Shown here one piece after another: positions 43,891 through 63,088 of a stretch of DNA of 64,000 nucleotides (positions are counted from its first letter, which is position 1; each line of letters opens with the position of its first letter). The notes beneath the pieces were generated by a model that saw only the letters and a list, made by a program, of their open reading frames with translations, ran no database searches and had not been told where the DNA came from. Source of the stretch: Limnohabitans sp. (GTDB lineage Bacteria; Pseudomonadota; Gammaproteobacteria; Burkholderiales; Burkholderiaceae_C); contig NZ_JAOASQ010000038.1 of assembly GCF_030158565.1 (NCBI RefSeq), positions 1 to 64,000 of the forward strand, read 5' to 3'. A program made the position numbers and the translations under genes.

Positions 43891-43988
43891 GGTCGTCCTT
43901 TGAATCTCGGTTACCCGATGGCATGCATTTTCATGACCTGGGTCAAGCCCATCTGCGCAACACTGCGGCACATTGGTCAACAGCCACC

Positions 43989-47680: not shown

Positions 47681-47720
47681 CCGTCATACAACTGCCACAG
47701 TTTCGTCATCGCCATTTCAT
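47681..47720 (+). promoter_or_regulatory. Tandem Pho boxes (PhoB sites) before ppk2
   Basis: CCGTCATACAACTGCCAC (47681-47698) matches the Pho box CTGTCATAAAACTGTCAC at 15 of 18 positions in 7-4-7 layout. A weaker unit, CGTCATCGCCATTTCAT, begins exactly 22 bases (two PhoB repeats) later, so four 11-bp units run in register. The boxes end about 28 bases before the ppk2 start. Confidence 0.75.
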
Positions 47721-47747
47721 TCGAAAAGACGAAATTAAGCTTTTTGA

Positions 47748-48677
47748 ATGGCACGTTGGCCCAAGACCATGCACCACCCCCATCAGATCAACGAAGACCA
47801 AATGCGCCAACTGCGCGAAGACCTGCTGGACAGTCTGGACGAAGAACTCGAACTGGAACTGGACGACCGCATCACGGAAAGCGGCGCATGCAGCCCCGAA
47901 AGTGTGAATACACGTGTGCGCTATTTCCGTGAATTGCTGCGCCTGCAATCTGAACTCGTCATGCTGCAAGACTGGGTGGTCAAAACCGGCCACCGCATGG
48001 TGATCCTGTATGAAGGCCGCGATGCCGCCGGCAAAGGCGGCGTGATCAAGCGCATCACGCAGCGCCTGAACCCTCGCGTGTGTCGCGTGGCCGCCCTGCC
48101 CGCCCCCAACGACCGCGAAAAAACCCAGTGGTACTTCCAGCGCTACATCTCACACTTGCCCGCAGCAGGCGAAATCGTGTTGTTTGACCGCAGCTGGTAC
48201 AACCGCGCGAGGGTCGAAAAAGTCATGGGCTTTTGCAACGACGAGGAATACGAAGAATTCTTCCGATCCGTGCCCGAGTTCGAGAAGATGCTGGTGCGCA
48301 GCGGCATTCAGTTGGTGAAGTATTGGTTTTCCATCACCGACGACGAACAGCATGCCCGCTTTTTGGGCCGCATCCACGATCCGCTGAAACAGTGGAAATT
48401 GAGCCCTATGGACCTGGAAAGCCGCCGCCGCTGGGAAGACTACACCCAGGCCAAGGAGACCATGATCGAACGCACCCACATCCCCGAAGCCCCATGGTGG
48501 GTGGTGCAAGCGGTGGACAAGAAGAAAGCACGTCTGAACTGCATTGACCATTTGCTCGGCCAAGTGCCTTATCACGAGATCGAGCACCCCCAGATCAATC
48601 TGCCGGGTCGCGTGCGCAACCCGGACTACATACGTCACCCGGTGCCACAAGACATGATCGTTCCAGAGAAATACTGA
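47748..48677 (+). CDS. ppk2: Polyphosphate kinase 2, class I
   Basis: Kinase using polyphosphate to phosphorylate nucleoside diphosphates (or the reverse), 309 residues. Walker A is YEGRDAAGKGG (residues 90-98 core), followed by VAALPAPNDREKTQWYFQRY, Walker B DRSWYNRA and the lid arginine region. The acidic N-terminal segment (LLDSLDEELELELDD) is typical of class I enzymes. A second ATG at 47769 (MHHPHQ) could be the start. It is convergent with phoR and preceded by tandem Pho boxes. Confidence 0.94.
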   Translation: MARWPKTMHHPHQINEDQMRQLREDLLDSLDEELELELDDRITESGACSPESVNTRVRYFRELLRLQSELVMLQDWVVKTGHRMVILYEGRDAAGKGGVIKRITQRLNPRVCRVAALPAPNDREKTQWYFQRYISHLPAAGEIVLFDRSWYNRARVEKVMGFCNDEEYEEFFRSVPEFEKMLVRSGIQLVKYWFSITDDEQHARFLGRIHDPLKQWKLSPMDLESRRRWEDYTQAKETMIERTHIPEAPWWVVQAVDKKKARLNCIDHLLGQVPYHEIEHPQINLPGRVRNPDYIRHPVPQDMIVPEKY

Positions 48678-48688
48678 TCAGCGCAAGA

Positions 48689-50023
48689 TCATCCCGCCTG
48701 GGGCTCCAGGCGGCTGACAGGCAAGACCAGCATGAAGGTCGATCCCTGCCCCACATGGCTTTCGATGCGCAACTCTCCGCCATGGCGTTGCGCCACATGT
48801 TTGGTGATGGCCAGACCCAAACCCGTGCCCCCCGTCTCGCGCGAGCGGCTGCGGTCCACCCGGTAGAAGCGCTCGGACAAACGTGGCAAATGTTCGGGCG
48901 CAATGCCCGGGCCCGTGTCGTTCACCGACAAGATGACTTGCTCGGCGTCACGTGTCCAAGCCACCCGGATCGTTCCCCCGGCTGGGGTGTAGCGCACCGC
49001 ATTGCTCACCAGGTTGGAAATCGCACTGAGCAACTCCGACCGCACACCCAACAAAACCCATGCGGGAGCAGGCTCGAACAAGAGCTCGTGCACACAACGG
49101 CGTTGGTCACTGTCTTGCCCAGACAGCATCGCCGACAAAGCCTGTGCATCCGAAGCGACCTGGGTCATCATTTCCTGCACGGAAATTTTCTCATTCATGC
49201 CGGGCGGCAAACTGCCCTCCAGCTGCGACAAGGTCAGCAAATCGGCCACCAGACTTTGCATGCGGGAAGCTTGCACCGCCATCAGGTCCAGATAACGCTG
49301 ACGCTCGTCCTCGGGCAAAGGGATCGATTGCAAGGTTTCCACAAAACCGCTCAACACCGTCAGCGGGGTGCGAATTTCATGCGATACATTGGCCACAAAG
49401 TCGCGCCGCATGGCATCGGCCAAGGCAATCGAAGTGATGTCCCGCGTGAGCAGCAACTGACGCCCCTCACCGTAGGCATGCAGCTGAACCGACAGCTTGA
49501 CACTGTGTGCCACCGACTGAGAGCGGCCTTCAATCACCACCTCGGCATCGTGCTGGGTCTGCGCAAAATACTTGGCAAAAACCGGATCGCGCACCAGATG
49601 CACCACATGCTGCAAGCGGTCACGCCGGATGTCCAAGCCCAAATGTGCAGCGGCTGTGTCATTGAACCATTCAATGCGGCCCTGATCGTCCAGCAAGGTC
49701 ACCCCATTGGGCGAGGCCTGAATGGCCTGCAGAAAATGCTGCAACCGTTGCTCATGCACCGCCACTTGTTTGTCGCGTTGTTTGATCAAACGCTGAATGC
49801 GTTGTGCAATCTCCAGCCAAAGGCCGCGCCACGCAACATCGCTGTTCAGATCGGGCCCAGCCAGCCAGCGCTCCAGCCTCTGCAACTTCCAGACCATCGC
49901 GCCAAAGCAGAGGCTGGCCGCAGCCAGCGCGGATGCAGCTGCGACGAATGCGCCCGACAGCCACCAGCCAAGGCCCGCGGCCAGCGCTGTCCAGAGCAGG
50001 AGTGAAAAAACCGGCATGAGCAT
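48689..50023 (-). CDS. phoR: Phosphate regulon sensor histidine kinase PhoR
   Basis: Membrane kinase of 444 residues that activates PhoB when phosphate is scarce. Two N-terminal helices (FSLLLWTALAAGLGWWL and FVAAASALAAASLCFGAMV), a basic linker, a PAS domain (NGVTLLDDQGRIEWFN), then the HisKA motif FVANVSHEIRTPLTVL and ATPase boxes NLVSNAVRYTP, DTGPGI and GTGLGLAI. It lies 14 bases after phoB at the end of the pst-pho operon. Confidence 0.96.
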   Translation of the reverse strand: MLMPVFSLLLWTALAAGLGWWLSGAFVAAASALAAASLCFGAMVWKLQRLERWLAGPDLNSDVAWRGLWLEIAQRIQRLIKQRDKQVAVHEQRLQHFLQAIQASPNGVTLLDDQGRIEWFNDTAAAHLGLDIRRDRLQHVVHLVRDPVFAKYFAQTQHDAEVVIEGRSQSVAHSVKLSVQLHAYGEGRQLLLTRDITSIALADAMRRDFVANVSHEIRTPLTVLSGFVETLQSIPLPEDERQRYLDLMAVQASRMQSLVADLLTLSQLEGSLPPGMNEKISVQEMMTQVASDAQALSAMLSGQDSDQRRCVHELLFEPAPAWVLLGVRSELLSAISNLVSNAVRYTPAGGTIRVAWTRDAEQVILSVNDTGPGIAPEHLPRLSERFYRVDRSRSRETGGTGLGLAITKHVAQRHGGELRIESHVGQGSTFMLVLPVSRLEPQAG

Positions 50024-50037
50024 GGCGAGATTCCCGA

Positions 50038-50733
50038 TCAGACCGCTGGCGAACCGGTCAGGCGGTAACCCGCCCCACGGACGGTCTCGATCATGGCACC
50101 CGCCTCACCCAAAGATTCACGCAAGCGTTTGACGTGCACGTCCACCGTGCGCTCTTCGATGTACACATGGTCGCCCCAAATTTTGTCGAGCAACATGCCA
50201 CGGGTGTGCACGCGTTCGGGGTGACGCATCAGGTACTGCAAGAGCTTGAATTCGGTCGGCCCCACCTTCAACGGCTTGTCTTGCCAGCTCACGCGGTAGG
50301 TGTCCGCATCCAGTTGCAACTCGGCGATCTTGACCAGCCCACCGGCAGACTCTGGCACACGGCGGCGCAAGACGGCGCGGATACGGGCCAGCAGTTCGCG
50401 CGGCGAAAAAGGCTTGACGATGTAATCGTCCGCGCCAGCATCCAGCCCGGCCACTCGGTCGGCCTCATCGCCACGCGCGGTCAGCATCAGGATGGGCACG
50501 GCCTTGGTGCGCGCCGCAGAGCGCCACCGACGTGCCAGCGCCAAACCACTCTCTCCGGGCAACATCCAGTCCAGCAAGATCACATCGGGCAAGACTTCAT
50601 CCAGCTCACGCTGGGCGGACTCGGCGTCCATGGCCCACACCGGTTGAAAGCCGTTGTGGCGCAAGTTCACCGAGATGAGTTCCGCAATCGCCGACTCGTC
50701 TTCGACAATCAGAATTCTGGGCAGGCTTCTCAT
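50038..50733 (-). CDS. phoB: Phosphate regulon response regulator PhoB
   Basis: OmpR-family activator, 231 residues. The receiver domain has VEDESAIAE, the phospho-acceptor aspartate in ILLDWMLPGESG, and KPFSPREL. The winged-helix domain includes PTEFKLLQYLMRHPERVHTR and the recognition helix EERTVDVHVKRLRE. Its ATG overlaps the phoU stop by four bases. It is the natural reader of the Pho boxes in this window. Confidence 0.97.
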   Translation of the reverse strand: MRSLPRILIVEDESAIAELISVNLRHNGFQPVWAMDAESAQRELDEVLPDVILLDWMLPGESGLALARRWRSAARTKAVPILMLTARGDEADRVAGLDAGADDYIVKPFSPRELLARIRAVLRRRVPESAGGLVKIAELQLDADTYRVSWQDKPLKVGPTEFKLLQYLMRHPERVHTRGMLLDKIWGDHVYIEERTVDVHVKRLRESLGEAGAMIETVRGAGYRLTGSPAV

Positions 50734-51428
50734 TTGACGGCTTGTTCAATGTCCGACAAAGCGGTGTGACGCACATCAGCGCCCTTGACCACGTAAATCA
50801 CAAACTCGGCGATGTTCTTGGCGTGGTCACCGATGCGCTCGATCGCTTTGGCCACGAACAGCAAGTCCAGGCTGGCCGAGATCGTGCGAGGGTCTTCCAT
50901 CATGTAGGTGACCAGTTTGCGCACAAAGCCATTGAACTCGGCATCGATCAGGTCGTCTTCTTTCAAGATCACCAATGCGGTGTTGACATCCAGACGCGCG
51001 AAGGCATCGAGCGACTTGCGCAGCAAGCCAGATGCCAAATCGGAGGCGATGCGCAGCTCGGACGATGGCAAATTGCGTGGGCTGCCCTGATCGAGAATCT
51101 GCTTGACCATGCGGGCAATGCGCTCGGCCTCGTCACCAGCGCGCTCCAGGTTGCCAGTGATCTTGGAGATCGCCATCAGAAGACGCAAATCGCGTGCGGT
51201 GGGCTGGCGGCGGGCGATGATCGAAGCCAATTCGGCATCGATCTCGACTTCCATGGTGTTGACCTGCTTTTCGCTGGCGATCACCTGATCGGCCACTTCG
51301 GCGCTGAACTGGGCCAGGGCGTAGACCGCGTGACGGGTCTGCGACTCCACCAAACCACCCAACTCCAGAACCCGCGAGGACACGTTGGTCAGGTCGGCAT
51401 CGAATTGACTTGAAATGTGCTTGTCCAT
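50730..51428 (-). CDS. phoU: Phosphate signalling protein PhoU
   Basis: All-helical regulator, 232 residues, that links the Pst transporter to PhoR and represses the Pho regulon under phosphate sufficiency. Two PhoU repeats are seen, each with acidic metal-binding turns (ERAGDEAERIARM and IERIGDHAKNIAEFVIY). It follows pstB by 13 bases. Confidence 0.96.
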   Translation of the reverse strand: MDKHISSQFDADLTNVSSRVLELGGLVESQTRHAVYALAQFSAEVADQVIASEKQVNTMEVEIDAELASIIARRQPTARDLRLLMAISKITGNLERAGDEAERIARMVKQILDQGSPRNLPSSELRIASDLASGLLRKSLDAFARLDVNTALVILKEDDLIDAEFNGFVRKLVTYMMEDPRTISASLDLLFVAKAIERIGDHAKNIAEFVIYVVKGADVRHTALSDIEQAVK

Positions 51429-51441
51429 GTTTTGCTCCTGA

Positions 51442-52233
51442 TCAGCCGAAACGGCCGGTGATGTAGTCTTCGGTTTCCTGGCGGGCGGGCTTCATGAAGA
51501 TCTGTTCGGTCTGACCAAACTCCATCAACTCACCCAGGTACATGTAGGCCGTGAAGTCCGACACACGCGCCGCTTGCTGCATGTTGTGGGTCACGATGGC
51601 CACGGTGTGGTCTTTCTTCAGCTCGCTCACCAGCTCTTCCACCTTGGCGGTCGAGATGGGGTCCAGGGCCGAGGTGGGCTCGTCCAGCAAGATGACTTTG
51701 GGCTTGACCGCCACGGTGCGCGCAATGCACAAACGCTGCTGCTGACCACCCGACAAGGACAAACCGCTTTGCCCGAGCTTGTCTTTGACCTCTGTCCAGA
51801 TCGCCGCCTTGGTCAGCGCCCATTCCACGCGCTCGTCCATGTCCGAGCGGCTCAAGTTTTCATACAAGCGGATGCCAAAAGCGATGTTGTCGTAGATCGA
51901 CATCGGGAAGGGTGTGGGCTTTTGGAAGACCATGCCCACACGGGCACGCAGCAAGTTCAGGTCTTGCTTGCTGTCCAGAATGTTCTGACCATAAAAATTG
52001 ATCTCGCCTTCGGCACGTTGACCGGGATACAGGCTGTACATGCGGTTGAGCGTGCGCAGCAAGGTGGACTTGCCGCAACCCGAAGGGCCAATGAAAGCGG
52101 TGACCTTGTTTTCGGCAATGTCCAGGTTGACATTCTTCAGACCCTTGAAGGCGCCATAAAAAAAGTTCAAGTTGCGGATTTCAATCGCGTTTTTCAATGG
52201 CAGGTTTTGCGTTGTGGGCATTGGAAATTCCAT
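51442..52233 (-). CDS. pstB: Phosphate ABC transporter ATP-binding protein PstB
   Basis: ATPase of the high-affinity phosphate importer, 263 residues. Walker [12 protein letters not shown]-loop [19 protein letters not shown], signature [13 protein letters not shown] and Walker [14 protein letters not shown] are present. A second ATG four codons in (MPTTQNLP) is preceded by GGAATTT and may be the actual start. Confidence 0.97.
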
Positions 52234-52246
52234 CCATTCAAAAAGA

Positions 52247-53095
52247 TTAGCCTTGGGCTTTTTCGCGGAAAAACACGCGGGCCAAGATGTTCAGGATCAA
52301 AACTGTCAAGGTGATCAGCAAGGCGCCGCCCCAGGCCAGACGCACCCAGTTGTCGTAAGGGCTCATGGCGAACTGGAAGATCACCACCGGCAAGTTCGCC
52401 ATCGGGGCGTTCATGTTGGTCGAGAAGAACTGGTTGTTCAAAGCGGTGAACAGCAAAGGCGCCGTCTCGCCGCTGATGCGGGCCAGTGCCAGCAACAAAC
52501 CGGTCATCACGCCTGATTTGGCCGCACGCAAAGTGATGAAGGTGGCCACCTTCCAGCGCGGTGCACCCAAGGCAAAGGCCGCTTCACGCAAGCTGCCGGG
52601 CACCAGGCGCAGCATGTTTTCGGTGGTGCGCACCACCACGGGCACCGCGATCAAGGACAAGGCCAAAGAACCGGCCCAGCCCGAGAAGTGCTGCACCTGT
52701 GCCACCAGCACCGCATACACAAACAGACCCAACACGATGGACGGGGCAGACAACATGATGTCGGTCACAAAGCGGGTGAGCTCTGCGGTTTTGCTTTGGT
52801 CGCCGTATTCGGCCAGGTACACCCCGGCGAAGATGCCGATGGGTGTGCTGACAAAAGCCGTCACCAGCACCATCATCAAGCTGCCCACGATGGCATTGGC
52901 CAAGCCACCGCCTTCGGAGCCGGGGGCCGGTGTGGATTGCGTGAACATGGCCCAATCCAGTGCGGCCAAGCCATTGGACAGCAGCACAAACAAGATCCAC
53001 AGCAAGACGAACAGGCCCAGGCCCATCGCCGTCAAAGACAAAGTCAAACCGATCCGGTTGGCCACTTGTCTGCGTTTGTAAATTTTCAGATCCAT
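52247..53095 (-). CDS. pstA: Phosphate ABC transporter permease PstA
   Basis: Six-helix inner-membrane permease, 282 residues. [32 protein letters not shown] and the ABC-binding EAA loop [24 protein letters not shown] mark the family. It pairs with PstC to form the phosphate channel; gaps to pstC and pstB are 22 and 13 bases. Confidence 0.96.
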
Positions 53096-53117
53096 CGTAT
53101 TTCTCCAGTGCGGGGCA

Positions 53118-54104
53118 TCAGGTCTTGGTGCCCTTGGCTTTTTCTGCGCGGATCAACATGATCTTGGCAGCGCTCAAGACGATGAAGGTGATCACGAACA
53201 GCAAGAAGCCCAATGCGAACAAGGTGGACAAGTGAAAGTCCGCCGCTTCACCAAACTCGTTGGCCAAGGTCGAAGCGATGGTGGTGCCGGGCGAAAACAA
53301 GGAAGCGCTCAGGCGCTGCGAATTGCCAATCACGAAAGTCACCGCCATGGTCTCGCCCAAAGCACGGCCCAAGCCCAACATGACGCCACCGATCACACCC
53401 TTTTGGGTGTAAGGCAAGACGATGCTGCGCACCACCTCCCAGGTGGTGCAGCCCAGGCCATAAGCCGACTCGCGCAAGATGGGCGGCACGATCTCAAACA
53501 CATCGCGCATGACGGCGGCGATGAAGGGCACGATCATGAACGCCAGCACAATGCCCGCGGCCAAAATGCCCACACCGTTCATGGCACCACCAAACAGGCT
53601 GCCGATGATGGGCATCTGACCCAGCGTCGATTGCAAGGCGGGTTGACCATACTCGGCAAACAGCGGCGCAAAGATGAACAGACCGAACATGCCGTAAATG
53701 ATGGACGGCACGGCCGCCAGCAACTCGATGGCCGTACCCAATGGACGGCGCAAATAAGTCGGGCAGGTTTCGGTCAAAAACAAGGCAATGCCAAATGACA
53801 AGGGCACGGCAATCAGCAAGGCGATCAATGCGCTGACCAAAGTACCGAAGATGGCAATCGCGGCGCCAAACTCTTCATTGACGATGTCCCACTCGACACG
53901 CCAGATGAACTGGAAACCGAATTTGGCCAATGCCGGCCAGGCATTGATCAGCAAGGAAATGATGATGCCCATCAGGGCAAACAAGACCAGCAGAGAAAAA
54001 CTCAGGGTGATCTTGTGGAAAAAGAAATCCTGGATGCGTTGACGCTTCACGACGGACAGCATGTTGTGATCGGGCGCATGGCTGGCCTGTTCGATCGGGT
54101 CCAT
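53118..54104 (-). CDS. pstC: Phosphate ABC transporter permease PstC
   Basis: Six-helix permease, 328 residues. The start [14 protein letters not shown] is chosen because AAGGA lies about six bases upstream; ATGs further up lie in the intergenic terminator region. The EAA loop reads [36 protein letters not shown] is another hallmark. Separated from pstS by 105 bases holding a hairpin terminator. Confidence 0.95.
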
Positions 54105-54146
54105 TTGAATTCCTTGTGACAACTGCATGGTGTTTACCACTTTGAA

Positions 54147-54177
54147 CAAAAACCCCTCACCCCGGAAGGTGAGGGGT
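54147..54177 (-). terminator. Attenuating terminator between pstS and pstC
   Basis: ACCCCTCACC/GGTGAGGGGT, 10 bp with a 6-nt loop; on the minus strand it ends in TTTTT. Placed inside the operon, it should let most transcripts stop after pstS and so give more binding protein than permease. Confidence 0.85.
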
Positions 54178-54209
54178 CAGGGGGCCGGACACCCGGCCTC
54201 CAGAACACA

Positions 54210-55226
54210 TCACTTGATCTCGGTCCAGACCTTGCTGCGGATCTGGCTTGTGAGACTGTCTGGCAGCGGCACATAGTCCAGGTCAGAAGCCATCTTCTTG
54301 CCGTTCTTGAAAGCCCAGTCAAAGAACTTCAGGACTTCATCCGAAGAAGCTTTGTCGGCAGGCTTTTTGTACATCAAGATGAACGAGGCGGTGCTGATGG
54401 GCCAGCTGTCATTGCCCTTGGCGTTGACCATCGACACACCCATGCCTGGCACGCTGAACCAGTCGGCGCCGGCAGCGGCAGCCGCAAAAGTCAGGTCGTC
54501 AGGGCTGACGTATTTGCCGGAGGCATTGAGCAACTGCAAAAAGTTCATGTTGTTTTTCTTGACGTAGGCGTATTCCACGTAACCCACAGCGCCTTTGACG
54601 CGGTTGACGTTGGCAGCCACGCCTTCGTTGCCCTTACCACCCACAGAAGAGTCCGCTGGCCACTTGACCGCAGCGCCCTTGCCCACTTTGTCGGACCAGT
54701 CTTTGCTGACCGCGCTCAGGTAGTCGGTGAAGTTGAAGGTGGTGCCCGAGCCGTCGGCGCGGTGCACCACGGTGATGGCTTGGTCAGGCAAGCTCTTGCC
54801 AGGGTTCAAGGCAGCCAGTTTGGCATCGTTCCATTTGGTGATGGTGCCCAGGTAAATGTCGGCCAGCACAGGGCCGCTGATGCGCAGCTCGCCTGGCTTG
54901 AAGCCTTGCAGGTTCACCACAGGCACTGTGCCGCCGATGATGGCCGGGAACTGCACCATGCCGTCTTTGTCCAGATCGGCACCCGACACGGGGGCGTCAG
55001 ACGCACCAAATGTCACCGTTTTGGCACGGATTTGCTTCAGACCGCCCGAAGAACCAATCGATTGGTAGTTCAAGCCTGTGCCCGTGGCGGCCTTGTAAGC
55101 CTCCGCCCATTTGGCGTACATGGGGTAGGGGAAGGTGGCGCCAGCGCCGGTGATGTCGGCAGCCCAGCTGGTGGCGGCCAAAACGCTCAAGCCCACGGCG
55201 GCAATCACGGATTTCATTTTCAACAT
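54210..55226 (-). CDS. pstS: Phosphate-binding periplasmic protein PstS
   Basis: High-affinity phosphate receptor, 338 residues, with signal peptide (MLKMKSVIAAVGLSVLAATSWA). Binding-site motifs: ITGAGATFPYPMYAKWAEAY, GSSGGLKQI, GASDAPVSGADL, and VVHRADGSGTTFNFTDYL. First gene of pstS-pstC-pstA-pstB-phoU-phoB-phoR; a Pho-box-like repeat lies about 90 bases upstream. Confidence 0.97.
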   Translation of the reverse strand: MLKMKSVIAAVGLSVLAATSWAADITGAGATFPYPMYAKWAEAYKAATGTGLNYQSIGSSGGLKQIRAKTVTFGASDAPVSGADLDKDGMVQFPAIIGGTVPVVNLQGFKPGELRISGPVLADIYLGTITKWNDAKLAALNPGKSLPDQAITVVHRADGSGTTFNFTDYLSAVSKDWSDKVGKGAAVKWPADSSVGGKGNEGVAANVNRVKGAVGYVEYAYVKKNNMNFLQLLNASGKYVSPDDLTFAAAAAGADWFSVPGMGVSMVNAKGNDSWPISTASFILMYKKPADKASSDEVLKFFDWAFKNGKKMASDLDYVPLPDSLTSQIRSKVWTEIK

Positions 55227-55314
55227 TTCAACTCCTGGTTCAGGGTCATCAAAAGACAGGAGGTCAGGAATTTGACCGCCCTTTCATTCATGGAATCGAA
55301 TTTAACGGTCGATT

Positions 55315-55332
55315 GTGACAAGAATGTGTCAA
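55315..55332 (-). promoter_or_regulatory. Pho-box-like repeat before pstS
   Basis: On the minus strand TTGACAC-ATTC-TTGTCAC, a 7-4-7 direct repeat whose second half fits PhoB's TGTCAC well (about 11 of 18 overall). It lies in the gap between pstS and the divergent MgtC-like gene and could serve both. Confidence 0.6.
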
Positions 55333-55455
55333 ACAAAAAACGGCTGTGTTTCAGCGCACGGAAGCCAAGGGCGGTCATCGCCATGATGGCCTTATATGCC
55401 GAGCACCCCGGTCCACGGCCCAAGCCATTGCGTATTTTTGGATTCAAAACATGTC

Positions 55456-56736
55456 ATGCTGACGCTCGTCGACCCTGCAGCACTCATCCCACTTTCTGTG
55501 GCATTGGGCATCGGTCTGCTGGTCGGCACGGAAAGAGAGCGCCACAAAGGCAGCGGTCCCCACCGCCGTTCCGCGGGCATCCGGACCTTCACAGGCGCGG
55601 CCATGCTGGGCTTTGCAGCGCAAAGTCTGGACGCGCCGTGGTTGGTGAGCGCGGCTTTGCTGGCCCTGGGCGCCCTGACCATGAGCGCTTACCAGCAATC
55701 GAGGCAACACGATCCGGGCCTGACCTCGGAAGTCGCCATTTTGCTGACCTGTCTGTTGGGCGCACTGTCGGGCGCATCCCCCGAATTGGCGGCCATCATG
55801 GGCATCGCCCTGGCGGCCATCTTGGCCGCGCGTGAGGAAATGCACCGCTTTGTGCACCAGGTCATCACAGAACAAGAGCTCAAAGACGTGATCATTTTCC
55901 TGGCAGCGGCCATGATCTTGCTGCCGCTGAGCCCAGACCATGACACGGGCCCTTTTCAAGCCATCAACCCGCATGACCTGGCGCGCTTTGTGGTCGCGGT
56001 CATGAGCATCAGCGCCTTGGGCTACATGGCCAAACGCATACTGGGCATGCGGGCTGGCATGGCCCTGACCGGTTTTGCCGGTGGTTTCATCTCCAGCACG
56101 GCCACCATCTTGGCCATGGGCCAGGCCGCCCAACGCGAGCCACACGTGCTGCATGCCGCCGCCATGGGCGCGGTGCTGTCCACGGTCTCGACCATGGTGC
56201 AGCTGGGCTTGTTGCTGGCCCTCTTTTTGCCCAGCCTGCTGCCACACATGCTTTTGCCCATCAGCCTGGGCTGCTGCACGGCGGGTCTTTATGCGCTGTG
56301 GCTGTACAAAGCCCATGAACCGGAATGCATGCCACCGAATCTGGACCTGAGGGGGCATGCCTTTGAGCACAAGACCACCTTGATCCTCAGCCTGGCGGTG
56401 CTCAGCATCACCGTCATGACCGCCGCCTTGAACCACTGGCTGGGCGAACCCGGCGTGCTCATCGCCAGCATGCTCGCAGGCCTGGTGGACGCGCACTCCA
56501 GCGTGGCCTCCATGAGCAGCTTGGTCCACCAAGGGCACGCCTCACTGTCCCAAGCACAGCTGGCCATTTTGTTGGCCGTCAGCACCAACAGCCTGAGCAA
56601 GTCCGCCGTCGCCATCGGTGCTGGCGGCAAAGCCTTTGCAGTCTTGATCCTGCCCGGTCTGCTGCTGGTGATCGCAGCAGTGTGGCTGGGCGCATGGGCC
56701 AAGCTGTGGCTCGCCAGCACCATCGGACCACTTTGA
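55456..56736 (+). CDS. MgtC/SapB and DUF4010 domain membrane protein
   Basis: Polytopic membrane protein of 426 residues. The N-terminal domain resembles MgtC (ALGIGLLVGTERER, HRRSAGIRTFTGAAMLGF), followed by the DUF4010 domain with ALTGFAGGFISSTATILAM and a conserved LAVSTNSLSKSAVA near the end. About a dozen helices are predicted. MgtC proteins affect phosphate uptake and magnesium homeostasis, but the reaction of this double-domain form is unknown. It is divergent from pstS and 14 bases ahead of a PPK2 gene, suggesting a role in phosphate or polyP-counterion balance. Confidence 0.85.
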   Translation: MLTLVDPAALIPLSVALGIGLLVGTERERHKGSGPHRRSAGIRTFTGAAMLGFAAQSLDAPWLVSAALLALGALTMSAYQQSRQHDPGLTSEVAILLTCLLGALSGASPELAAIMGIALAAILAAREEMHRFVHQVITEQELKDVIIFLAAAMILLPLSPDHDTGPFQAINPHDLARFVVAVMSISALGYMAKRILGMRAGMALTGFAGGFISSTATILAMGQAAQREPHVLHAAAMGAVLSTVSTMVQLGLLLALFLPSLLPHMLLPISLGCCTAGLYALWLYKAHEPECMPPNLDLRGHAFEHKTTLILSLAVLSITVMTAALNHWLGEPGVLIASMLAGLVDAHSSVASMSSLVHQGHASLSQAQLAILLAVSTNSLSKSAVAIGAGGKAFAVLILPGLLLVIAAVWLGAWAKLWLASTIGPL

Positions 56737-56750
56737 CAAGGAGAAAACGC

Positions 56751-57569
56751 ATGAGCCACATCGACTGGTCCGACTGGCGCGTGTCCGCCGGGCACCCTGT
56801 GAATTTGTCCGACAGGCCCACTTGGCCCGCCGCGCACACGGAGGCCGAAAAGCCACTGTGGCCCGCACGCATGGCCGAACTGGCAGACCAGCTCAACCGG
56901 CTGCAAGCCACGCTTCATGCCAGCAAAACACGCGCATTGCTCTTGGTGCTGCAAGGCATGGACACCGCAGGCAAAGACGGCTGTATCCGCAGTGTCTTTG
57001 CACACATCAGCCCCTTGGGCGTGCGGGCCGAGGCTTTTGGCGTGCCCCAGGCGCTGGAACAACAGCACGATTTCCTTTGGCGCATCCATGCCAAAACCCC
57101 GGCACTGGGGGAGATGGTGATTTTCAACCGCAGCCATTACGAAGATGTGCTGGTGCCCGTTGTGCAGGGCACCCTGCAGCGTGCCCTGTGTGAAAAAAGA
57201 CACCACCACATCCGGCACTTTGAAGCCTTGCTCCACGACAGTGGCGTTGCGGTCGTCAAATGCTATTTGCACATCTCCAAACAGGAACAGAAAAAGCGCC
57301 TGCAAGCCCGACTGGACGACCCTTTGAAACACTGGAAAGTCCAAGCCTCTGACTTTGAAGACCGCCGGCACTGGCGGGCCTACATGCACGCGTACGAAAA
57401 CGCCATGCAAGCGACCTGCAGCGACGAAGCGCCTTGGTATGTGGTGCCCGCCGATTCGAAGCCTTACCGCGATCTGTTGGTGGCCGAACTGCTGGTGCAT
57501 ACCCTGCAGGGCATGTCCTTGGTGATGCCCAGACCGAAGCTGGATCTGGCCGATTTCAAAATGAGGTGA
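56751..57569 (+). CDS. Polyphosphate kinase 2, class III-like
   Basis: PPK2-family nucleotide kinase of 272 residues. Walker A is LQGMDTAGKDG (residues 69-77), with GVRAEAFGVPQALEQQHDFLWR and Walker B FNRSHYEDVLVPVV, the class III pattern (enzymes that can phosphorylate both AMP/GMP and ADP/GDP). It differs clearly from the class I enzyme at 47.7 kb (DRSWYNRA). AAGGAG lies just before the ATG. Followed four bases later by the CHAD gene. Confidence 0.9.
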   Translation: MSHIDWSDWRVSAGHPVNLSDRPTWPAAHTEAEKPLWPARMAELADQLNRLQATLHASKTRALLLVLQGMDTAGKDGCIRSVFAHISPLGVRAEAFGVPQALEQQHDFLWRIHAKTPALGEMVIFNRSHYEDVLVPVVQGTLQRALCEKRHHHIRHFEALLHDSGVAVVKCYLHISKQEQKKRLQARLDDPLKHWKVQASDFEDRRHWRAYMHAYENAMQATCSDEAPWYVVPADSKPYRDLLVAELLVHTLQGMSLVMPRPKLDLADFKMR

Positions 57570-57572
57570 CCC

Positions 57573-58391
57573 ATGCCGCACAGCACACGGGCCAAAAGCA
57601 GGGCCGTTCAGAACCTGCTGCCCAACCCAGAACAACAAGCCTGGTGGTTTGTGAAACACCTGCTGCGGACCTCGCTGCAAGACACCCGGTCTTTGCTCCT
57701 GACCTGGACGCACACCCGGCAAACAGAAACCTTGCACCAGGCACGGGTGGCGTGGCGGCGTCAAAAATCCCTTTTGAAGTTTTACAGGCCCCTGCTGCCT
57801 GAACCGCCTCAGCGCCACAACGATGCGCTGCAAACTTTGTGGCGCCTGACGGGGCAGCTGCGCAATCTGGATGTGGCGCTGGAATGCACCCTGCCCGCCT
57901 GGCGCCATGCCCACCCGGATGCGTGCACCCACGAGTGGGCAGGCCTGGTGCAGCAACTGCACCAAGATCGTCAACTGGCGCGGCATGCATTGGCCAAGGA
58001 AATAGCAAGACCCCGCACCGCCGCCAGGTTCCAGCAACTGCGCACCTGGATGAAACGCTTGGACAGCGTCACCCTGAAGGTTCGGCGCAAATCCTTCGAG
58101 CAATGGGCCCAACACAGGCTGCGGCGTTTGCATCAAAAGATCAAGTCCCAACAGCATCCCTTCACGCCTGAGCGACAGCACCGATGCCGCATCCTCCTCA
58201 AGCAAGAGCGGCATGCCCTGGAGAGCCTGCTGGCGAACCACCCCGACAAAAAACGCCGTGCGCGGCTCAAGCGCAACAGAAAAAAACAAATAGTGTGGGG
58301 CCACGACCAAGACATGCAAACGGCGCTGGAGCTGATCGAAGGGCTGGGGCACTGCCCTGAATTGACAAAGGCTTGGCGTGCATCGATGTGA
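57573..58391 (+). CDS. CHAD-domain protein
   Basis: Helical, strongly basic protein of 272 residues. Conserved positions include TLHQARVAWRRQKSLLKFYRPLL and QLRNLDVALE, then many Arg/Lys/His-rich helices (RQHRCRILLKQERHALESLL, KKRRARLKRNRKK). CHAD domains bind polyphosphate and can sit on polyP granules. It stands alone here without the usual CYTH partner. Position four bases after a PPK2 gene and before ppx supports a polyP role. Confidence 0.88.
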   Translation: MPHSTRAKSRAVQNLLPNPEQQAWWFVKHLLRTSLQDTRSLLLTWTHTRQTETLHQARVAWRRQKSLLKFYRPLLPEPPQRHNDALQTLWRLTGQLRNLDVALECTLPAWRHAHPDACTHEWAGLVQQLHQDRQLARHALAKEIARPRTAARFQQLRTWMKRLDSVTLKVRRKSFEQWAQHRLRRLHQKIKSQQHPFTPERQHRCRILLKQERHALESLLANHPDKKRRARLKRNRKKQIVWGHDQDMQTALELIEGLGHCPELTKAWRASM

Positions 58392-58418
58392 CCCTTTGGA
58401 TTTCATGCGTGAAAAGGC

Positions 58419-58447
58419 TTGTCATCAATTTTTCAAATATCCGTCAC
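58419..58447 (+). promoter_or_regulatory. Pho-box-like triple repeat before ppx
   Basis: Three 7-mers spaced by four bases, TTGTCAT-CAAT-TTTTCAA-ATAT-CCGTCAC, each 11 bp apart, the spacing of PhoB subunits on DNA. They end 33 bases before the ppx start. The first ten bases, TTGTCATCAA, recur exactly before ppk1. Confidence 0.6.
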
Positions 58448-58480
58448 ATAATCCGGGCCACTGCTGCCACCGACTCCACC

Positions 58481-59980
58481 ATGCAAACCCAATCCCTCTT
58501 CGCCGCCATTGATCTGGGATCCAACAGTTTTCGTCTTGAAATCGGTCAACTGGAGGCGGGGCACCTGCGGCGTGTGGAATACCTCAAAGAAACAGTGCGC
58601 CAAGGCAATGGCCTGGATGCAGAGCGCCATTTGAGTGACGCCGCCATGCAACGCGGCTGGGACTGTCTGGCCCGATTTGCAGAACGGATTGCGGGCTTCC
58701 AGCCCCACCAAGTGCGCGCCGTGGCCACACAGACCATGCGCGAAGCCCGCAACCGAGAGGTTTTCTTGGCCAAAGCCAAAGACATTCTGGGTTTTCCGAT
58801 CGAGGTCATCGCGGGACGCGAAGAAGCACGCCTGATTTACCTGGGCGTTTCACACCTCTTGCCCCAATCCACAGAGCGCCGACTGGTGGTGGACATTGGC
58901 GGGCGCTCGACCGAATTGATCCTGGGCCAAAACGTCCAAGCCCAGACGCTGGAGTCTTACCGCGTGGGCAGCGTAGCCTGGTCGATGAAATACTTTCCCG
59001 ACGGGCAATGGACCAACTCGGCATTCAAGGCGGCAGAGATTGCGGCCAAAGCCATTTTGGACGAGGCGCAAATGCTCTACCCGCGTTCAAGCTGGGACAC
59101 CTGCTACGGTTCATCCGGCACCGTGGGCGCGGTGGCCGATGTGCTGGCTCTGGCGGGTTGGCCTGAAGGCCTGATCACACGCGATGGGCTGGACTGGCTC
59201 AAAGACAAACTGCTCAAGGCACAAAAACCTGAGCACCTCAAAATCGAAGGCATCAAAGAAGACCGCCGTCCGGTCATCGGCGGCGGCTTGGCCGTCTTGC
59301 GTGCCGTTTTTGATCTGCTTCAAATTGACGAGATGGTGGCCGCACAAGGCGCCCTGCGCCATGGTGCCTTGTACGACCTGCTGGACCGCGAAAGCCCGCA
59401 AGACGATGTGCGAACACACATGGTGGACTGGCTCACACAACGTTTTGGATCTGATCTGGTGCAGGCTGAACGCGTATCACGCACAGCTCAAACATTGCTG
59501 ACACACATGCTGGGCCAAGACAGCGATGACAAGGAAGCTGTGCGCCATTTGCGCAAAGTGGATTGGGCCGCCCAACTGCACGAAGTGGGCATGCGCATCT
59601 CGCACAGCGACTACCACAAGCACGGCGCCTACATTTTGGACAACACCGACTTGCCGGGTTTCACGATCGACGAATTGCACCGCCTGAGCCAGCTGGTGCT
59701 GGGCCACCGCGGCAAGCTGCGCAAACTCGATGCGCCTTTGCAAGACCCCTTATTTGTTCAGCAGCTCATGGCCTTGCGCATGAGCGTGATCCTTTGCCAT
59801 GCCCGCCGCGACCCGGACACCTCGTCGATGACGCTCCATGTGGACACGGCCAAACAAATCGCACGACTCAAAATCAGCGCACCATGGGCAGAGCAATGGC
59901 CACAATCGACCCATTTGCTGCGCGAAGAATGCATGGCCTGGCTCAAAACCGGCTGGGAGCTCAAGGTGCAATTCATCTGA
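58481..59980 (+). CDS. ppx: Exopolyphosphatase (Ppx/GppA family)
   Basis: Processive polyP hydrolase, 499 residues. Actin-like ATPase-fold motifs AAIDLGSNSFRLEIGQL, ATQTMREARN, AGREEARLIYLGV, VVDIGGRSTELILG and YGSSGTVGAVADVL are present; a C-terminal HD-type region follows (LHEVGMRISHSDYHKHGAYIL). The length favours Ppx over GppA. ATG at 58481 begins MQTQSLFAAID; the longer frame to 58373 overlaps the Pho-box region and the CHAD stop. Confidence 0.93.
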   Translation: MQTQSLFAAIDLGSNSFRLEIGQLEAGHLRRVEYLKETVRQGNGLDAERHLSDAAMQRGWDCLARFAERIAGFQPHQVRAVATQTMREARNREVFLAKAKDILGFPIEVIAGREEARLIYLGVSHLLPQSTERRLVVDIGGRSTELILGQNVQAQTLESYRVGSVAWSMKYFPDGQWTNSAFKAAEIAAKAILDEAQMLYPRSSWDTCYGSSGTVGAVADVLALAGWPEGLITRDGLDWLKDKLLKAQKPEHLKIEGIKEDRRPVIGGGLAVLRAVFDLLQIDEMVAAQGALRHGALYDLLDRESPQDDVRTHMVDWLTQRFGSDLVQAERVSRTAQTLLTHMLGQDSDDKEAVRHLRKVDWAAQLHEVGMRISHSDYHKHGAYILDNTDLPGFTIDELHRLSQLVLGHRGKLRKLDAPLQDPLFVQQLMALRMSVILCHARRDPDTSSMTLHVDTAKQIARLKISAPWAEQWPQSTHLLREECMAWLKTGWELKVQFI

Positions 59981-60011
59981 GAGACAGCGCACACACGCCA
60001 ACATGGCGGTC

Positions 60012-60039
60012 GTTGATTTCCTTTCATCAACGGTATAAA
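60012..60039 (+). promoter_or_regulatory. Inverted repeat and -10 before the basic protein gene
   Basis: GTTGAT-N8-ATCAAC is a perfect 6-bp inverted repeat (60012-60031), directly followed by TATAAA (60034-60039). The dyad covers the -35 zone, so a regulator bound there would control the gene starting 30 bases on. It is too widely spaced for FNR. Confidence 0.45.
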
Positions 60040-60068
60040 CTGTATGCACTGTTTTTCAAGGAAGCCCC

Positions 60069-60473
60069 ATGACCGCCTCATCCGTAAAAAGCCGAACCAC
60101 AACGACGGCCAAAGCACCCGCCAAGAAAACCAAACCATCAGCAACTCGCAAGACACCACCAAGTTCCGTCAAGCCTTCGGCCAAACCCCTCCAGGCCACG
60201 CCGGTTGAAGTGCCCCTGGCCACCACTGAAAAATCCAAGCCCGCCAAAGAGAAAAAAGTGAAAGTCGTGCGCGACAGCTTCACCATTCCCAAGACCGAAT
60301 TCACGCAAATCGCCGACATGAAAAAACGCGCCATGGCGCTGGGCGTCGAGATCAAGAAAAGCGAATTGATCCGTGCCGGCCTGCAAATCATTTCGGGTTT
60401 GCCAGACGCCAGCTTCAAAAAAGCGTTGGCTGCCATTCCTACGGTGAAAACAGGCCGCCCCAGCAAGGCTTGA
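60069..60473 (+). CDS. Lys/Ala/Ser-rich histone-tail-like protein with C-terminal helical domain
   Basis: Protein of 134 residues. Residues 1-60 are low complexity and strongly basic, with AKAPAKKTKPSATRK and PSSVKPSAKP runs like histone H1 or PhaF/PhaM tails. Residues 61-134 form a compact domain (VRDSFTIPKTEFTQIADMKKRAMALGV..., then KKSELIRAGLQIISGL and a closing KTGRPSKA) that may be ribbon-helix-helix-like. No characterised homologue is recognised. It sits between ppx and sixA-ppk1, ending four bases before the convergent sixA stop. Confidence 0.85.
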   Translation: MTASSVKSRTTTTAKAPAKKTKPSATRKTPPSSVKPSAKPLQATPVEVPLATTEKSKPAKEKKVKVVRDSFTIPKTEFTQIADMKKRAMALGVEIKKSELIRAGLQIISGLPDASFKKALAAIPTVKTGRPSKA

Positions 60474-60477
60474 GGGT

Positions 60478-60939
60478 TTACAGCCGATCAGGCACGGTGA
60501 CCGACATGATCACCGTCTGGTCGACGCCGTCGCGCAGGCGGCTTCGCAACCACCAGACGGCACCCTTGCGAACAGGGCAAGGAGACTCTCCCATCTGCAA
60601 CAAGCGGGAAGCCACCGCACCCAGTGCAGGCTGGTGCCCCACCAAAACCACCGGGTATTTGGCATGGGGCCAGCCTGCCGTTTCCAGCAAGTCATCCACC
60701 GATGCCCCCGGCGACAAGGCATCGCGCACTTTGTACCGGCGCCCCAAAGCACGCACCGTCTGTTCGGCCCGCACGGCAGGGCTGCTGAATATCCGCACGC
60801 CATCGGGCAGCTGGCGATCGAGCCAGACCGCCATCCGCGCGGCATGCTTTTCACCACGCGTGGTCAAAGCCCTTTGCATGTCATCCTGACCGGCCTCGGC
60901 ATCGTGGGCTTCGGCGTGTCGCCACAAGATCAAGTCCAT
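60478..60939 (-). CDS. sixA: SixA-type phosphohistidine phosphatase
   Basis: Histidine-phosphatase superfamily enzyme, 153 residues, with catalytic LILWRHAEAHDAEAG (RHA/G), a second arginine in FSSPAVRAEQTVRAL and the VVLVGHQPAL histidine. SixA removes phosphate from phosphohistidine. Start MDLILWRH is chosen with GGAG eight bases upstream rather than a GTG three codons earlier. It lies 11 bases after ppk1 and is probably co-transcribed with it. Confidence 0.9.
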   Translation of the reverse strand: MDLILWRHAEAHDAEAGQDDMQRALTTRGEKHAARMAVWLDRQLPDGVRIFSSPAVRAEQTVRALGRRYKVRDALSPGASVDDLLETAGWPHAKYPVVLVGHQPALGAVASRLLQMGESPCPVRKGAVWWLRSRLRDGVDQTVIMSVTVPDRL

Positions 60940-60950
60940 GCACTGCACTC

Positions 60951-63026
60951 CTAGGCTGCTGCGCTGTAGCGCGCCATCAAAGCGTTTTGTGCGCCATGCC
61001 CCGGAGCGTTCAGACCCACACGGTGGTAACGACCATCGGGGGCCAGATCCCAGGCATCCTTGCTGTCATGCAAATAGGCCAGCAAGCATTCATCGATGAT
61101 GCGTTGGCGCAAGATGGGGTCATCGACTGGCCAAGCCAATTCAATGCGCCGCATCATGTTGCGACTCATCCAGTCGGCACTCGACAAATACAAAGACTCT
61201 GTCTCACCCGCACGGAAATAAAACACGCGCGAGTGCTCCAGAAAGCGCCCAATCACCGAGCGCACCCGGATGTTTTCACTCACCCCGGGCACGCCCGCAG
61301 GCAACATGCAAGCACCGCGCACAATTAAATCAATCTTCGCGCCTTGCTGACCTGCCGCCAGCAAGGCTTCGATCAGAGGCACATCGGTCAAGGCATTCAT
61401 CTTCAGGACGATGCGGCCACCCCGGCCAGCTTTGGCCGAAGCACCCACCGCACGAATGCGCGAGAGCATGTCGGCGTGCAGGGTGAAGGGCGCCACCAGC
61501 AAGCGTTTCATCTTGGGCAAGCGACTTTGGCTGGCCAAATGGCCAAACAGCTGGTCCATGTCGGCCGTGATGGCGGGATCGGCCGTGAGGTAACTGATGT
61601 CGGTGTACAGCTTGGCAGTGCGCGGGTTGTAGTTGCCCGTGGACAAATGCCCGTAGCGCCGCAGTGAGCGGCCTTCCCGACGGGTGATCAGCAGCATCTT
61701 GGCGTGGGTCTTCAGGCCCACCACACCATAGACCACCTGGGCGCCGATCGACTCGAGCTGCTCGGCCCAGTTGATGTTGGCTTCTTCGTCAAAACGGGCT
61801 TTGAGTTCCACCACAGCAGTGACCTCTTTGCCCTGACGCACGGCTTCACACAGCAAATCCATCATGGCCGGGTCACTGCCCGTGCGGTAAATGGTCTGTT
61901 TGATGGCCAGCACGTTCGGGTCCGACACCGCCTCGCGCAAGAACGCCAGCACACCGTCAAAACTTTCAAAGGGCTGATGGAACATCACATCACCCTGGCG
62001 CAGCCGCGCCAGAACCGAGCCGTGGCTGGGCAACTGTGCCGGAAAGCTGGCCTTGTAAATCGGGAACAACAAATGCGGCGCCTGCGCCAGATCGATCAGC
62101 TGCATCAGGCGCACCAGGTTCACCGGGCCATTGACACGGAACACCGACGGCTCTGGCAACTGGAATTCTTTGCGCAAGAATTCGGCCAATCGCAGCGAAC
62201 AATCGGACGAGACCTCCAGCCGCACCGATTGACCGTAGTTCCGGTGCTGCAAGCCTTCTCGCAAAGCCGTGCGCAAGTTGCCGATGTCGTCTTCATCGAC
62301 CGCCAAATCCGAGTGGCGCGTGACCCTGAACTGCGAGAACTGCCCCACCACACGGCCTGGAAACAGCTCACTCAAATGGGCACGGATCACGCTCGACAAG
62401 AGCACAAAAGAAGTGGCGCCATCGCACAACTTGGCCGGCAGTGGAATCAATCGGGGCAAGACCCGTGGAACCTTGACGATGGCGATCTCGTTGGAGCGGC
62501 CAAATGCATCCTTGCCAGACAACTGGACAATGAAGTTCAAGGACTTGTTGGCCACCTGCGGAAAGGGATGAGCGGGATCGAGCCCCACCGGCACCAACAA
62601 GGGCTGCACTTCGCGGTGGAAATAACTGCGCACCCAGCGGCGTTGCTCGGCATTGCGCTCGCCGTGCGAGAGGATGCGAAAGCCCTGACGCTCCAGTGCG
62701 GGCAAGAGATCGTCGTTGTACAGCGCGTACTGCCGCGCCACCATGGCATTGGCTTGCTCGGTGATGGCCGCCAGGCTTTCGTGTGTGTAAGGGCCAGAAC
62801 GCAAACCCTGCAAGGCGCCCATCACATGCGGCTCGGCACGCACTTCAAAAAACTCGTCCAGGTTGGACGAGACAATGCACAAATAGCGCAGGCGCTCCAG
62901 CACAGGCACATCGGGCCGGTGCGCCCAATCGAGCACGCGCTCATTGAAGGCGAGGATGCTCAGGTCGCGGTCCAGCAGGGATGACTGGACCTTCTCGCTC
63001 AAGTTTGCAGGGAATTCAGAACGCAT
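60951..63026 (-). CDS. ppk1: Polyphosphate kinase 1
   Basis: Membrane-associated kinase that builds polyP from ATP, 691 residues. Visible: the N domain (SLLDRDLSILAFNERVLDWA and SSNLDEFFEVRAE), the Arg-rich middle (DVMFHQPFESFDGV), the catalytic phospholipase-D-like domains with the autophosphorylated histidine in GLKTHAKMLLITR and RYGHLSTGNYNP, and FYFRAGETESLYLSSADWMSRN. Start MRSEFPAN preferred, with GGAAAG upstream; an earlier ATG at 63068 lies closer to the Pho-box region. Confidence 0.96.
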   Translation of the reverse strand: MRSEFPANLSEKVQSSLLDRDLSILAFNERVLDWAHRPDVPVLERLRYLCIVSSNLDEFFEVRAEPHVMGALQGLRSGPYTHESLAAITEQANAMVARQYALYNDDLLPALERQGFRILSHGERNAEQRRWVRSYFHREVQPLLVPVGLDPAHPFPQVANKSLNFIVQLSGKDAFGRSNEIAIVKVPRVLPRLIPLPAKLCDGATSFVLLSSVIRAHLSELFPGRVVGQFSQFRVTRHSDLAVDEDDIGNLRTALREGLQHRNYGQSVRLEVSSDCSLRLAEFLRKEFQLPEPSVFRVNGPVNLVRLMQLIDLAQAPHLLFPIYKASFPAQLPSHGSVLARLRQGDVMFHQPFESFDGVLAFLREAVSDPNVLAIKQTIYRTGSDPAMMDLLCEAVRQGKEVTAVVELKARFDEEANINWAEQLESIGAQVVYGVVGLKTHAKMLLITRREGRSLRRYGHLSTGNYNPRTAKLYTDISYLTADPAITADMDQLFGHLASQSRLPKMKRLLVAPFTLHADMLSRIRAVGASAKAGRGGRIVLKMNALTDVPLIEALLAAGQQGAKIDLIVRGACMLPAGVPGVSENIRVRSVIGRFLEHSRVFYFRAGETESLYLSSADWMSRNMMRRIELAWPVDDPILRQRIIDECLLAYLHDSKDAWDLAPDGRYHRVGLNAPGHGAQNALMARYSAAA

Positions 63027-63070
63027 GTGTTTCTTTCCAACTCTATGGGTTCTGATGTTAGAAATCACTC

Positions 63071-63088
63071 AAGTCAGCTTGATGACAA
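63071..63088 (-). promoter_or_regulatory. Pho-box-like repeat before ppk1
   Basis: On the minus strand TTGTCAT-CAAG-CTGACTT, 7-4-7, about 12 of 18 bases of the Pho consensus. Its first ten bases are identical to those before ppx. It begins right after the stop of the upstream glycosyltransferase gene and about 45 bases before the ppk1 start. Confidence 0.5.

What the first reader, a model, noticed from the sequence alone, without database searches (positions are those of the whole stretch)
47681..63088. Phosphate-polyphosphate supercluster: Pho control, uptake, three polyP kinases, exopolyphosphatase, CHAD
Within about 15.5 kb lie ppk2 class I, the whole pstSCAB-phoU-phoB-phoR operon, an MgtC/DUF4010 protein, a class III-like ppk2, CHAD, ppx, a histone-tail-like protein, sixA and ppk1, with Pho-box-like repeats before four transcription units. 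Each family is known, but having synthesis, use, breakdown, binding and regulation contiguous suggests one PhoB-run polyP storage and energy module. The unassigned members (DUF4010 protein, basic protein) become candidates for new polyP functions.
Basis: partly seen in the sequence, partly recalled or inferred. Interest (0 to 1): 0.75.

Follow-up and report, generated by a model that had tools for sequence, protein, structure and literature searches.

The report
Phosphate-storage gene cluster with histone-tailed DNA-binder
A freshwater bacterium keeps its phosphate-uptake and polyphosphate-storage genes together, apparently under one phosphate switch, and among them sits a widespread, so far unnamed protein with a histone-like tail that may tie polyphosphate stores to the chromosome.

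Summary
In detail: the named genes are present, and the five best Pho-box scores in the 64-kb window lie before ppx, ppk1 (two), pstS/DUF4010 and ppk2-I. The host is probably Limnohabitans. The core order pho-pst / ppx / basic protein / sixA-ppk1 is widely shared in Comamonadaceae, a known kind of locus. The DUF4010-PPK2-CHAD block is a Limnohabitans insertion (4 of 37 comparable loci). The novelty is the 134-aa basic protein. It belongs to a family absent from Pfam and NCBIfam: a K/A/P-rich, H1-like tail on a ribbon-helix-helix-like core, found in 105 of 200 family genomes and, by profile, in 19 further families. Its gene sits near different polyP/phosphate genes in different arrangements (41 of 65 out-of-family loci against 1 of 40 random stretches). 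Most copies (138 of 159) have a tandem 9-bp-period operator upstream, found once in this genome. Two distant plasmid relatives sit beside ParA. I propose an autoregulated, polyP-linked nucleoid protein working like AlgP (a tether); a polyP-sensing repressor is the main rival. Function is inferred, not shown.

The parts
47681..47720 (+). three tandem 11-bp Pho-box-like units before ppk2-I
   Evidence: marginal against shuffles, p = 0.055
47748..48677 (+). ppk2 class I (TIGR03707)
48689..50023 (-). phoR
   Evidence: TIGR02966, 381 bits
50038..50733 (-). phoB
   Evidence: receiver + Trans_reg_C
50730..51428 (-). phoU
51442..52233 (-). pstB
   Evidence: translation; no family scan
52247..53095 (-). 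pstA
   Evidence: translation; no family scan
53118..54149 (-). pstC (start codon uncertain)
   Evidence: translation; no family scan
54210..55226 (-). pstS
55315..55332 (-). Pho box between divergent pstS and MgtC-DUF4010
   Evidence: 12.9, p = 0.040 against shuffles; 38 of 38 pstS upstream regions in named loci
55396..56736 (+). MgtC + DUF4010 membrane protein (start may be 55456)
56748..57569 (+). second PPK2 (TIGR03709)
57573..58391 (+). CHAD protein
58419..58447 (+). tandem Pho box before ppx, best site of the window (16.2)
58478..59980 (+). ppx (ORF opens at 58373)
60031..60053 (+). tandem 9-bp-period operator of the basic gene; the only copy in the genome by the pattern used
60069..60473 (+). 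basic 134-aa protein: K/A/P-rich tail (1-~62) + RHH-like core (~63-134)
60478..60948 (-). SixA-like histidine phosphatase
   Evidence: below family cut-off
60951..63068 (-). ppk1 (start may lie a few codons further in)
63071..63099 (-). tandem Pho box before ppk1

Best explanation
This is a PhoB-controlled locus for phosphate uptake and polyP storage. Its core (pho-pst, ppx, basic gene, sixA-ppk1) is widely shared in Comamonadaceae, with lineage-specific additions here (ppk2-I nearby; DUF4010-PPK2-CHAD). The basic protein is one member of a broad undescribed family. Its core is a ribbon-helix-helix-like DNA-binding domain related to the partners of plasmid ParA; it binds a tandem operator before its own gene and so limits its own synthesis. 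Its lysine-rich, H1-like disordered tail binds polyanions (polyP and/or DNA), so that the protein links polyP granules to the nucleoid, as AlgP does in Pseudomonas. Shown here: gene content, shared order, recurrent linkage, the tail, one operator per genome in most. Inferred: PhoB binding, RHH fold, DNA binding and autorepression, polyP binding, tethering.
For: Linkage to polyP/Pi genes in varied arrangements: 74 of 80 named loci and 41 of 65 out-of-family loci, in 11 of 19 families, against 1 of 40 random stretches. Of 13 plasmid copies fetched (of 15 records), 4 lie beside PhoU, a CHAD protein, a 'phosphate transport regulator' or PPK1-PstS. In four of the five family genomes with the basic gene but no ppk1, PPK2-I lies within 3 kb of it (L208, L210, L211, L212). 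Tail: K 20%, A 24%, P 13%, median net charge +17, N-terminal in 127 of 145 proteins. Operator pair in 138 of 159 loci, spacing 9 in 130 of 138. AlgP precedent: H1-like KPAA tail, granule-bound, needed for even granule spacing (PMC9239181, passages).
Against: No test of polyP binding or localisation. 24 of 65 out-of-family loci and 6 of 80 named loci show no linkage; of 89 family genomes with both coordinates listed, 27 have it and ppk1 on different contigs and 11 far apart on one contig. Presence is not significantly tied to PPK1 across 200 genomes (p = 0.12). 9 of 13 plasmid copies fetched show no such neighbour. RHH fold not confirmed: Pfam ParD E 0.24 in 1 of 23 members; Foldseek best E 2.8. 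Basic tails also fit plain DNA binding.
Confidence: 0.45

Rival explanations
1. PolyP-sensing repressor: the core represses its own gene (perhaps also neighbours), and polyP draws the protein off the operator through the basic tail, so that its level follows the polyP store.
For: Operator pair lies upstream of its own gene in 138 of 159 loci and is found once in the own genome; the tail is strongly basic; neighbours are often polyP enzymes.
Against: By the pattern used, no second operator in this genome, so no regulon beyond itself is visible; I know of no precedent for such a sensor.
Confidence: 0.25
2. Partition-type protein: an orphan centromere-binding RHH protein whose single tandem array acts as an anchoring site, working with a ParA ATPase.
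For: Piscirickettsia and Calothrix plasmid relatives lie beside ParA and have 9-bp tandem pairs upstream (0 and 2 mismatches); orphan ParA-type genes lie within 1 kb of K-tailed copies in L062, L065, L106, L145, L151.
Against: Only 9 of 160 loci have a KGGxGK[ST] motif within 3 kb. No such ParA in the own genome or in the same-genus genomes G087 and G189 at E<=1e-25; orphan ParA and basic gene are not associated (p = 0.61).
Confidence: 0.1
3. General nucleoid-associated protein; the linkage reflects old gene order only.
For: Basic tail; 24 of 65 out-of-family loci unlinked; presence not tied to PPK1.
Against: Linkage recurs with different partners and orders in 11 of 19 families and on some plasmids.
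Confidence: 0.15
4. Antitoxin of a toxin-antitoxin pair.
For: RHH-like core, autoregulatory-type operator, weak ParD hits.
Against: No toxin gene seen next door here: the next gene is sixA on the other strand; sixA and ppk1 are in 69 of 80 named stretches.
Confidence: 0.03

Closest known systems
AlgP / PhaF of Pseudomonas (H1-like granule tethers)
   Same: Disordered K/A/P-rich tail, tie to polyP (AlgP) or PHA (PhaF) granules
   Different: Here the tail is mostly N-terminal, the folded part is an RHH-like core of about 70 aa with an operator upstream, and the gene often sits in the polyP locus. AlgP's folded part is a 124-aa alpha-helical N-terminal domain (PMC9239181, passages)
RHH-like partner proteins of plasmid ParA (Piscirickettsia L231, Calothrix L229)
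   Same: Homologous core (32% and 42% identity by tblastn), tandem 9-bp pairs upstream
   Different: Their tails are not K/A/P-rich and they have an adjacent ParA; most chromosomal copies have no ParA motif within 3 kb (151 of 160)
PhoB-controlled pst-pho and ppk-ppx clusters (recalled as a known kind)
   Same: Gene content, Pho boxes
   Different: Additions here: second PPK2, CHAD, MgtC-DUF4010; the basic protein was not found described
Acidithiobacillus folD-ppk-parA-CHAD and archaeal sixA-ppx-CHAD clusters (PMC10892726, passages)
   Same: PolyP genes grouped with CHAD, parA or SixA
   Different: Other lineages and orders; no basic RHH protein in the passages seen

Membership tests
AlgP-type polyP granule tether | H1-like K/A/P-rich disordered tail | tested here: met
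   tail without helix or strand in the AF2 model
AlgP-type polyP granule tether | AlgP N-terminal helical domain | not tested
   no AlgP sequence was compared
AlgP-type polyP granule tether | localises to polyP granules and spaces them | not testable with these tools
   needs microscopy
Ribbon-helix-helix superfamily | significant profile or fold match | tested here: inconclusive
   ParD E 0.0097 best of 2 of 23 members (NCBIfam), Pfam E 0.24, PDB ParD E 0.75; Foldseek ranks 1, 3 and 6 are Reg576, a ParD and NikR (RHH by recall) but E >= 2.8
Ribbon-helix-helix superfamily | two helices after an N-terminal strand, SE..RAG motif, tandem operator | tested here: inconclusive
   helices 15-30 and 37-49 at high pLDDT, strand not seen in the monomer; tandem operator found; motif likeness is recalled
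ParA-partner centromere-binding protein | core homology and tandem array | tested here: met
ParA-partner centromere-binding protein | adjacent or cognate ParA | tested here: not met
   no hit in the window and none of the orphan type in the own genome at E<=1e-25; other ParA types in the genome were not searched
Pho regulon | Pho boxes before the units | tested here: met
   marginal for ppk2-I and pstS in this genome
Pho regulon | PhoB-dependent expression | not testable with these tools
   needs RNA-seq or footprinting
SixA (TIGR00249) | score over the curated cut-off | tested here: not met
   65.3 bits against 74.5
Type II antitoxin | adjacent toxin gene | tested here: not met
   convergent sixA next door

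The most novel reading that the evidence does not exclude
A plasmid-partition protein was captured by the polyP locus: the ParA-partner RHH core, with one centromere-like array per genome, gained a polyP-binding H1-like tail and now positions or segregates polyP granules, in some lineages with an orphan ParA as motor. That would be a partition-type organelle-positioning system for polyP.
Probability: 0.15. Interest if true: 0.85.

Novelty: new variant of a known kind. Interest (0 to 1): 0.6.

Why it matters
How bacteria place polyP granules is open: in the passages I saw, a 2025 review lists AlgP of P. aeruginosa as its one polyP-granule positioning protein, calls the need for energy unknown, and says the responsible proteins in Caulobacter have not been identified (PMC13052382). 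A widespread single-gene candidate next to ppx and ppk1 in many Betaproteobacteria, with a defined operator, makes the question directly testable by one deletion and one fluorescent fusion.

Tried and rejected
Plain Pho-box consensus search: not enriched. The basic protein against Pfam, NCBIfam, PHROGs and PDB sequences: no convincing family (best PHROG E 0.0018 in 1 of 23 members, function unknown); the best PDB-sequence hits to the core (designed armadillo repeats, E 0.013) are partial helix matches. Foldseek: none significant. Presence-absence ties of the basic gene to PPK1, orphan ParA and DUF4010: none significant. DUF4010 as a general polyP partner: unsupported (81 of 200 genomes; I saw it near ppk1 or the basic gene in G080, G032 and G137 besides the window, by comparing listed coordinates). 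A contig-join artefact for ppk2-I next to phoR: unlikely, since Jir72 has the same block order with an insert; but in 11 other Limnohabitans loci read (of 19 other same-genus genomes with ppk2-I) phoR is not within 1.5 kb. Sigma-70 promoter scan of 55200-63200: none found. Paper searches for a published description: polyphosphate + ribbon-helix-helix gave 22 papers, the 12 listed being mostly on toxin-antitoxin systems; at least three of RHH, lysine-rich, histone H1, Burkholderiales gave none; polyphosphate + sixA + ppk gave 3; two searches on ppk/ppx/pho clusters gave 4 and 2, none on this locus by title.
Full report
WHAT IS THERE. The gene list is correct (pstB, pstA and pstC were not scanned against families). 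The two PPK2 genes found in the genome are both in the window. The genome is a 3.05-Mb, 92%-complete assembly. The host is judged to be Limnohabitans from the nearest named records: L035 is Limnohabitans sp. Jir72 and L034 an unnamed Comamonadaceae MAG (94% and 97% identity over residues 68-134 of the basic protein).

PHO CONTROL. A plain consensus count is at chance. With a two-unit 11-bp score whose weights I set by hand from the known consensus, the five best positions in 64 kb are the sites before ppx, ppk1 (two), pstS/DUF4010 and ppk2-I; against shuffles of each region ppx and ppk1 are clear, pstS/DUF4010 (p = 0.040) and ppk2-I (p = 0.055) marginal. In 80 named loci, upstream scores at or above the 90th percentile of 240 random 300-mers occur for pstS 38 of 38, ppk1 58 of 62, ppx 44 of 61, MgtC-DUF4010 4 of 4 (shared with pstS) and ppk2-I 2 of 3. 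Others: sixA 2 of 70, GT 5 of 34, phoR 1 of 18, phoB 2 of 31, phoU 1 of 28, pstB 3 of 37, pstA 2 of 37, pstC 4 of 35, CHAD 0 of 4, second PPK2 1 of 8. The ppx-basic gap shows no Pho box (p = 0.42). Before ppk2-I, 4 of 11 other Limnohabitans loci score 16 or more.

GENE ORDER. The 80 named loci are the best of 585 confirmed candidates, so a set chosen by likeness to the basic protein. Of them 69 hold sixA and ppk1 (one more, L080, with ppk1 cut by the stretch end), 63 hold ppx and 34 the downstream glycosyltransferase. The usual order is phoR-phoB-phoU-pstBACS, then ppx and the basic gene, then sixA-ppk1 on the other strand. The DUF4010-PPK2-CHAD block lies between pstS and ppx in 4 of the 37 loci whose stretch holds both (L034, L035, L038, L045). 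CHAD or PPK2 genes turn up near the locus singly in others (CHAD in L076, L080, L085, L090; PPK2-I in L059, L070, L072, L075, L086). In Jir72 ppk2-I also precedes phoR, about 7.4 kb away. So the core is old and ordinary; the additions are recent.

THE BASIC PROTEIN. It has no Pfam or NCBIfam family. It is in 105 of 200 family genomes and 80 of 141 genera; a 23-sequence profile finds it in 68 of 300 order genomes, 37 of 134 genera, the out-of-family matches falling in 19 families (a few weak, such as G431 and G362). The core is well conserved (82 of 152 distinct cores aligned, 61% mean column identity). Of 145 full proteins, 127 have an N-terminal tail of 25 aa or more (median 91 aa, K 20%, A 24%, P 13%, median charge +17), 23 such a C-terminal tail, and only the interrupted L199 neither. 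AlphaFold2 gives three helices at high confidence in the core and no structure in the tail. RHH likeness rests on weak ParD hits, on the pattern of the core (recalled), and on non-significant Foldseek hits of which three of the top six are RHH proteins.

LINKAGE. All 65 out-of-family matches were fetched: 41 have a polyP/Pi gene in the stretch (up to 20 kb), against 1 of 40 random stretches of 20 of these genomes (p = 8e-11). Linked loci occur in 11 of 19 families. The orders differ: ppk1|basic|sixA-ppk2; basic-phoU-ppx; phoU-ppx..sixA..basic; basic-pstSCAB-phoU-phoB-phoR; ppk1..basic..phoB. Of 13 plasmid copies fetched, 4 lie next to PhoU, a CHAD protein, a 'phosphate transport regulator' or PPK1-PstS; one follows an arsenic operon, two lie beside ParA and six show nothing telling, five of these being unannotated stretches screened only with the window's proteins. 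Four of the five family genomes that have the basic gene but no ppk1 have PPK2-I within 3 kb of it; the fifth (G036) has PPK2 elsewhere. Against this: 24 of 65 out-of-family loci are unlinked, and presence does not track PPK1 significantly (100 of 105 against 84 of 95, p = 0.12).

OPERATOR. Upstream of the gene lies a tandem of GTWTAWAC units with a 9-bp period: 138 of 159 loci have a pair with at most 3 mismatches in 16 (random 620-mers of the same loci: 44 of 805, not screened for overlap with the real sites); with spacings 8-11 allowed, 130 of 138 have spacing 9. By the pattern used it occurs once in the own genome, at 60033-60053. In 120 family genomes, sites are found in 45 of 62 with the gene and 3 of 58 without (p = 3e-15). 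In 44 of those 45 a site lies within 321 bp of the gene match; places elsewhere are in G004, G022, G035, G051, G072 and G093. 17 of 62 genomes with the gene have no site by this pattern.

RELATIVES. On a Piscirickettsia and a Calothrix plasmid the core's relatives (32% and 42% identity) sit beside ParA ATPases; a chromosomal relative without the long K-rich tail (L197) also pairs with ParA. Orphan ParA-type genes lie within 1 kb of K-tailed copies in L062, L065, L106, L145 and L151, but a ParA motif is within 3 kb in only 9 of 160 loci, none of this type was found here, and it is not associated with the basic gene (p = 0.61). Independently, Acidithiobacillus has a conserved folD-ppk-parA-CHAD group (PMC10892726, passages).

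READING. The best-supported mechanism is a self-limiting, polyP-linked nucleoid protein working like AlgP (PMC9239181, passages). It is not filed as an AlgP member, since the AlgP domain was not compared; nor as a ParA partner, since no such ParA was found. MgtC of Salmonella binds PhoR and raises phosphate transport (PMC6658541, abstract), which offers a lead, no more, for the MgtC-DUF4010 protein.

Noticed in passing
60478-60948 with 60951-63068; L033-L112: A sixA-like gene lies with ppk1 in 69 of 80 named stretches and recurs near polyP genes in other families; since PPK1 works through a phosphohistidine (recalled), SixA may act on PPK1.
   Followed up: partly
63089-63976: A glycosyltransferase-like gene follows ppk1 here and is in 34 of 80 named stretches; no reason known.
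   Followed up: no
L062, L065, L106, L145, L151: An orphan ParA-type ATPase (about 206 aa, KGGxGK[ST]) lies within 1 kb of the basic gene in these loci; relatives of the L106 protein are in 155 of 200 family genomes.
   Followed up: partly
L224: On a Comamonas aquatica plasmid the basic gene directly follows an arsenic resistance operon (arsenate is a phosphate analogue).
   Followed up: no
55396-58391; L034, L035, L038, L045: MgtC-DUF4010, PPK2 and CHAD travel as a block in some Limnohabitans-type genomes, divergent from pstS with a shared Pho box.
   Followed up: partly
43923-46541 and 46596-47480: A P-type cation ATPase and a sterol-desaturase-like gene (both read from translation only) lie just upstream; the latter stays near ppk2-I in L248, L251, L256 and L266.
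   Followed up: partly
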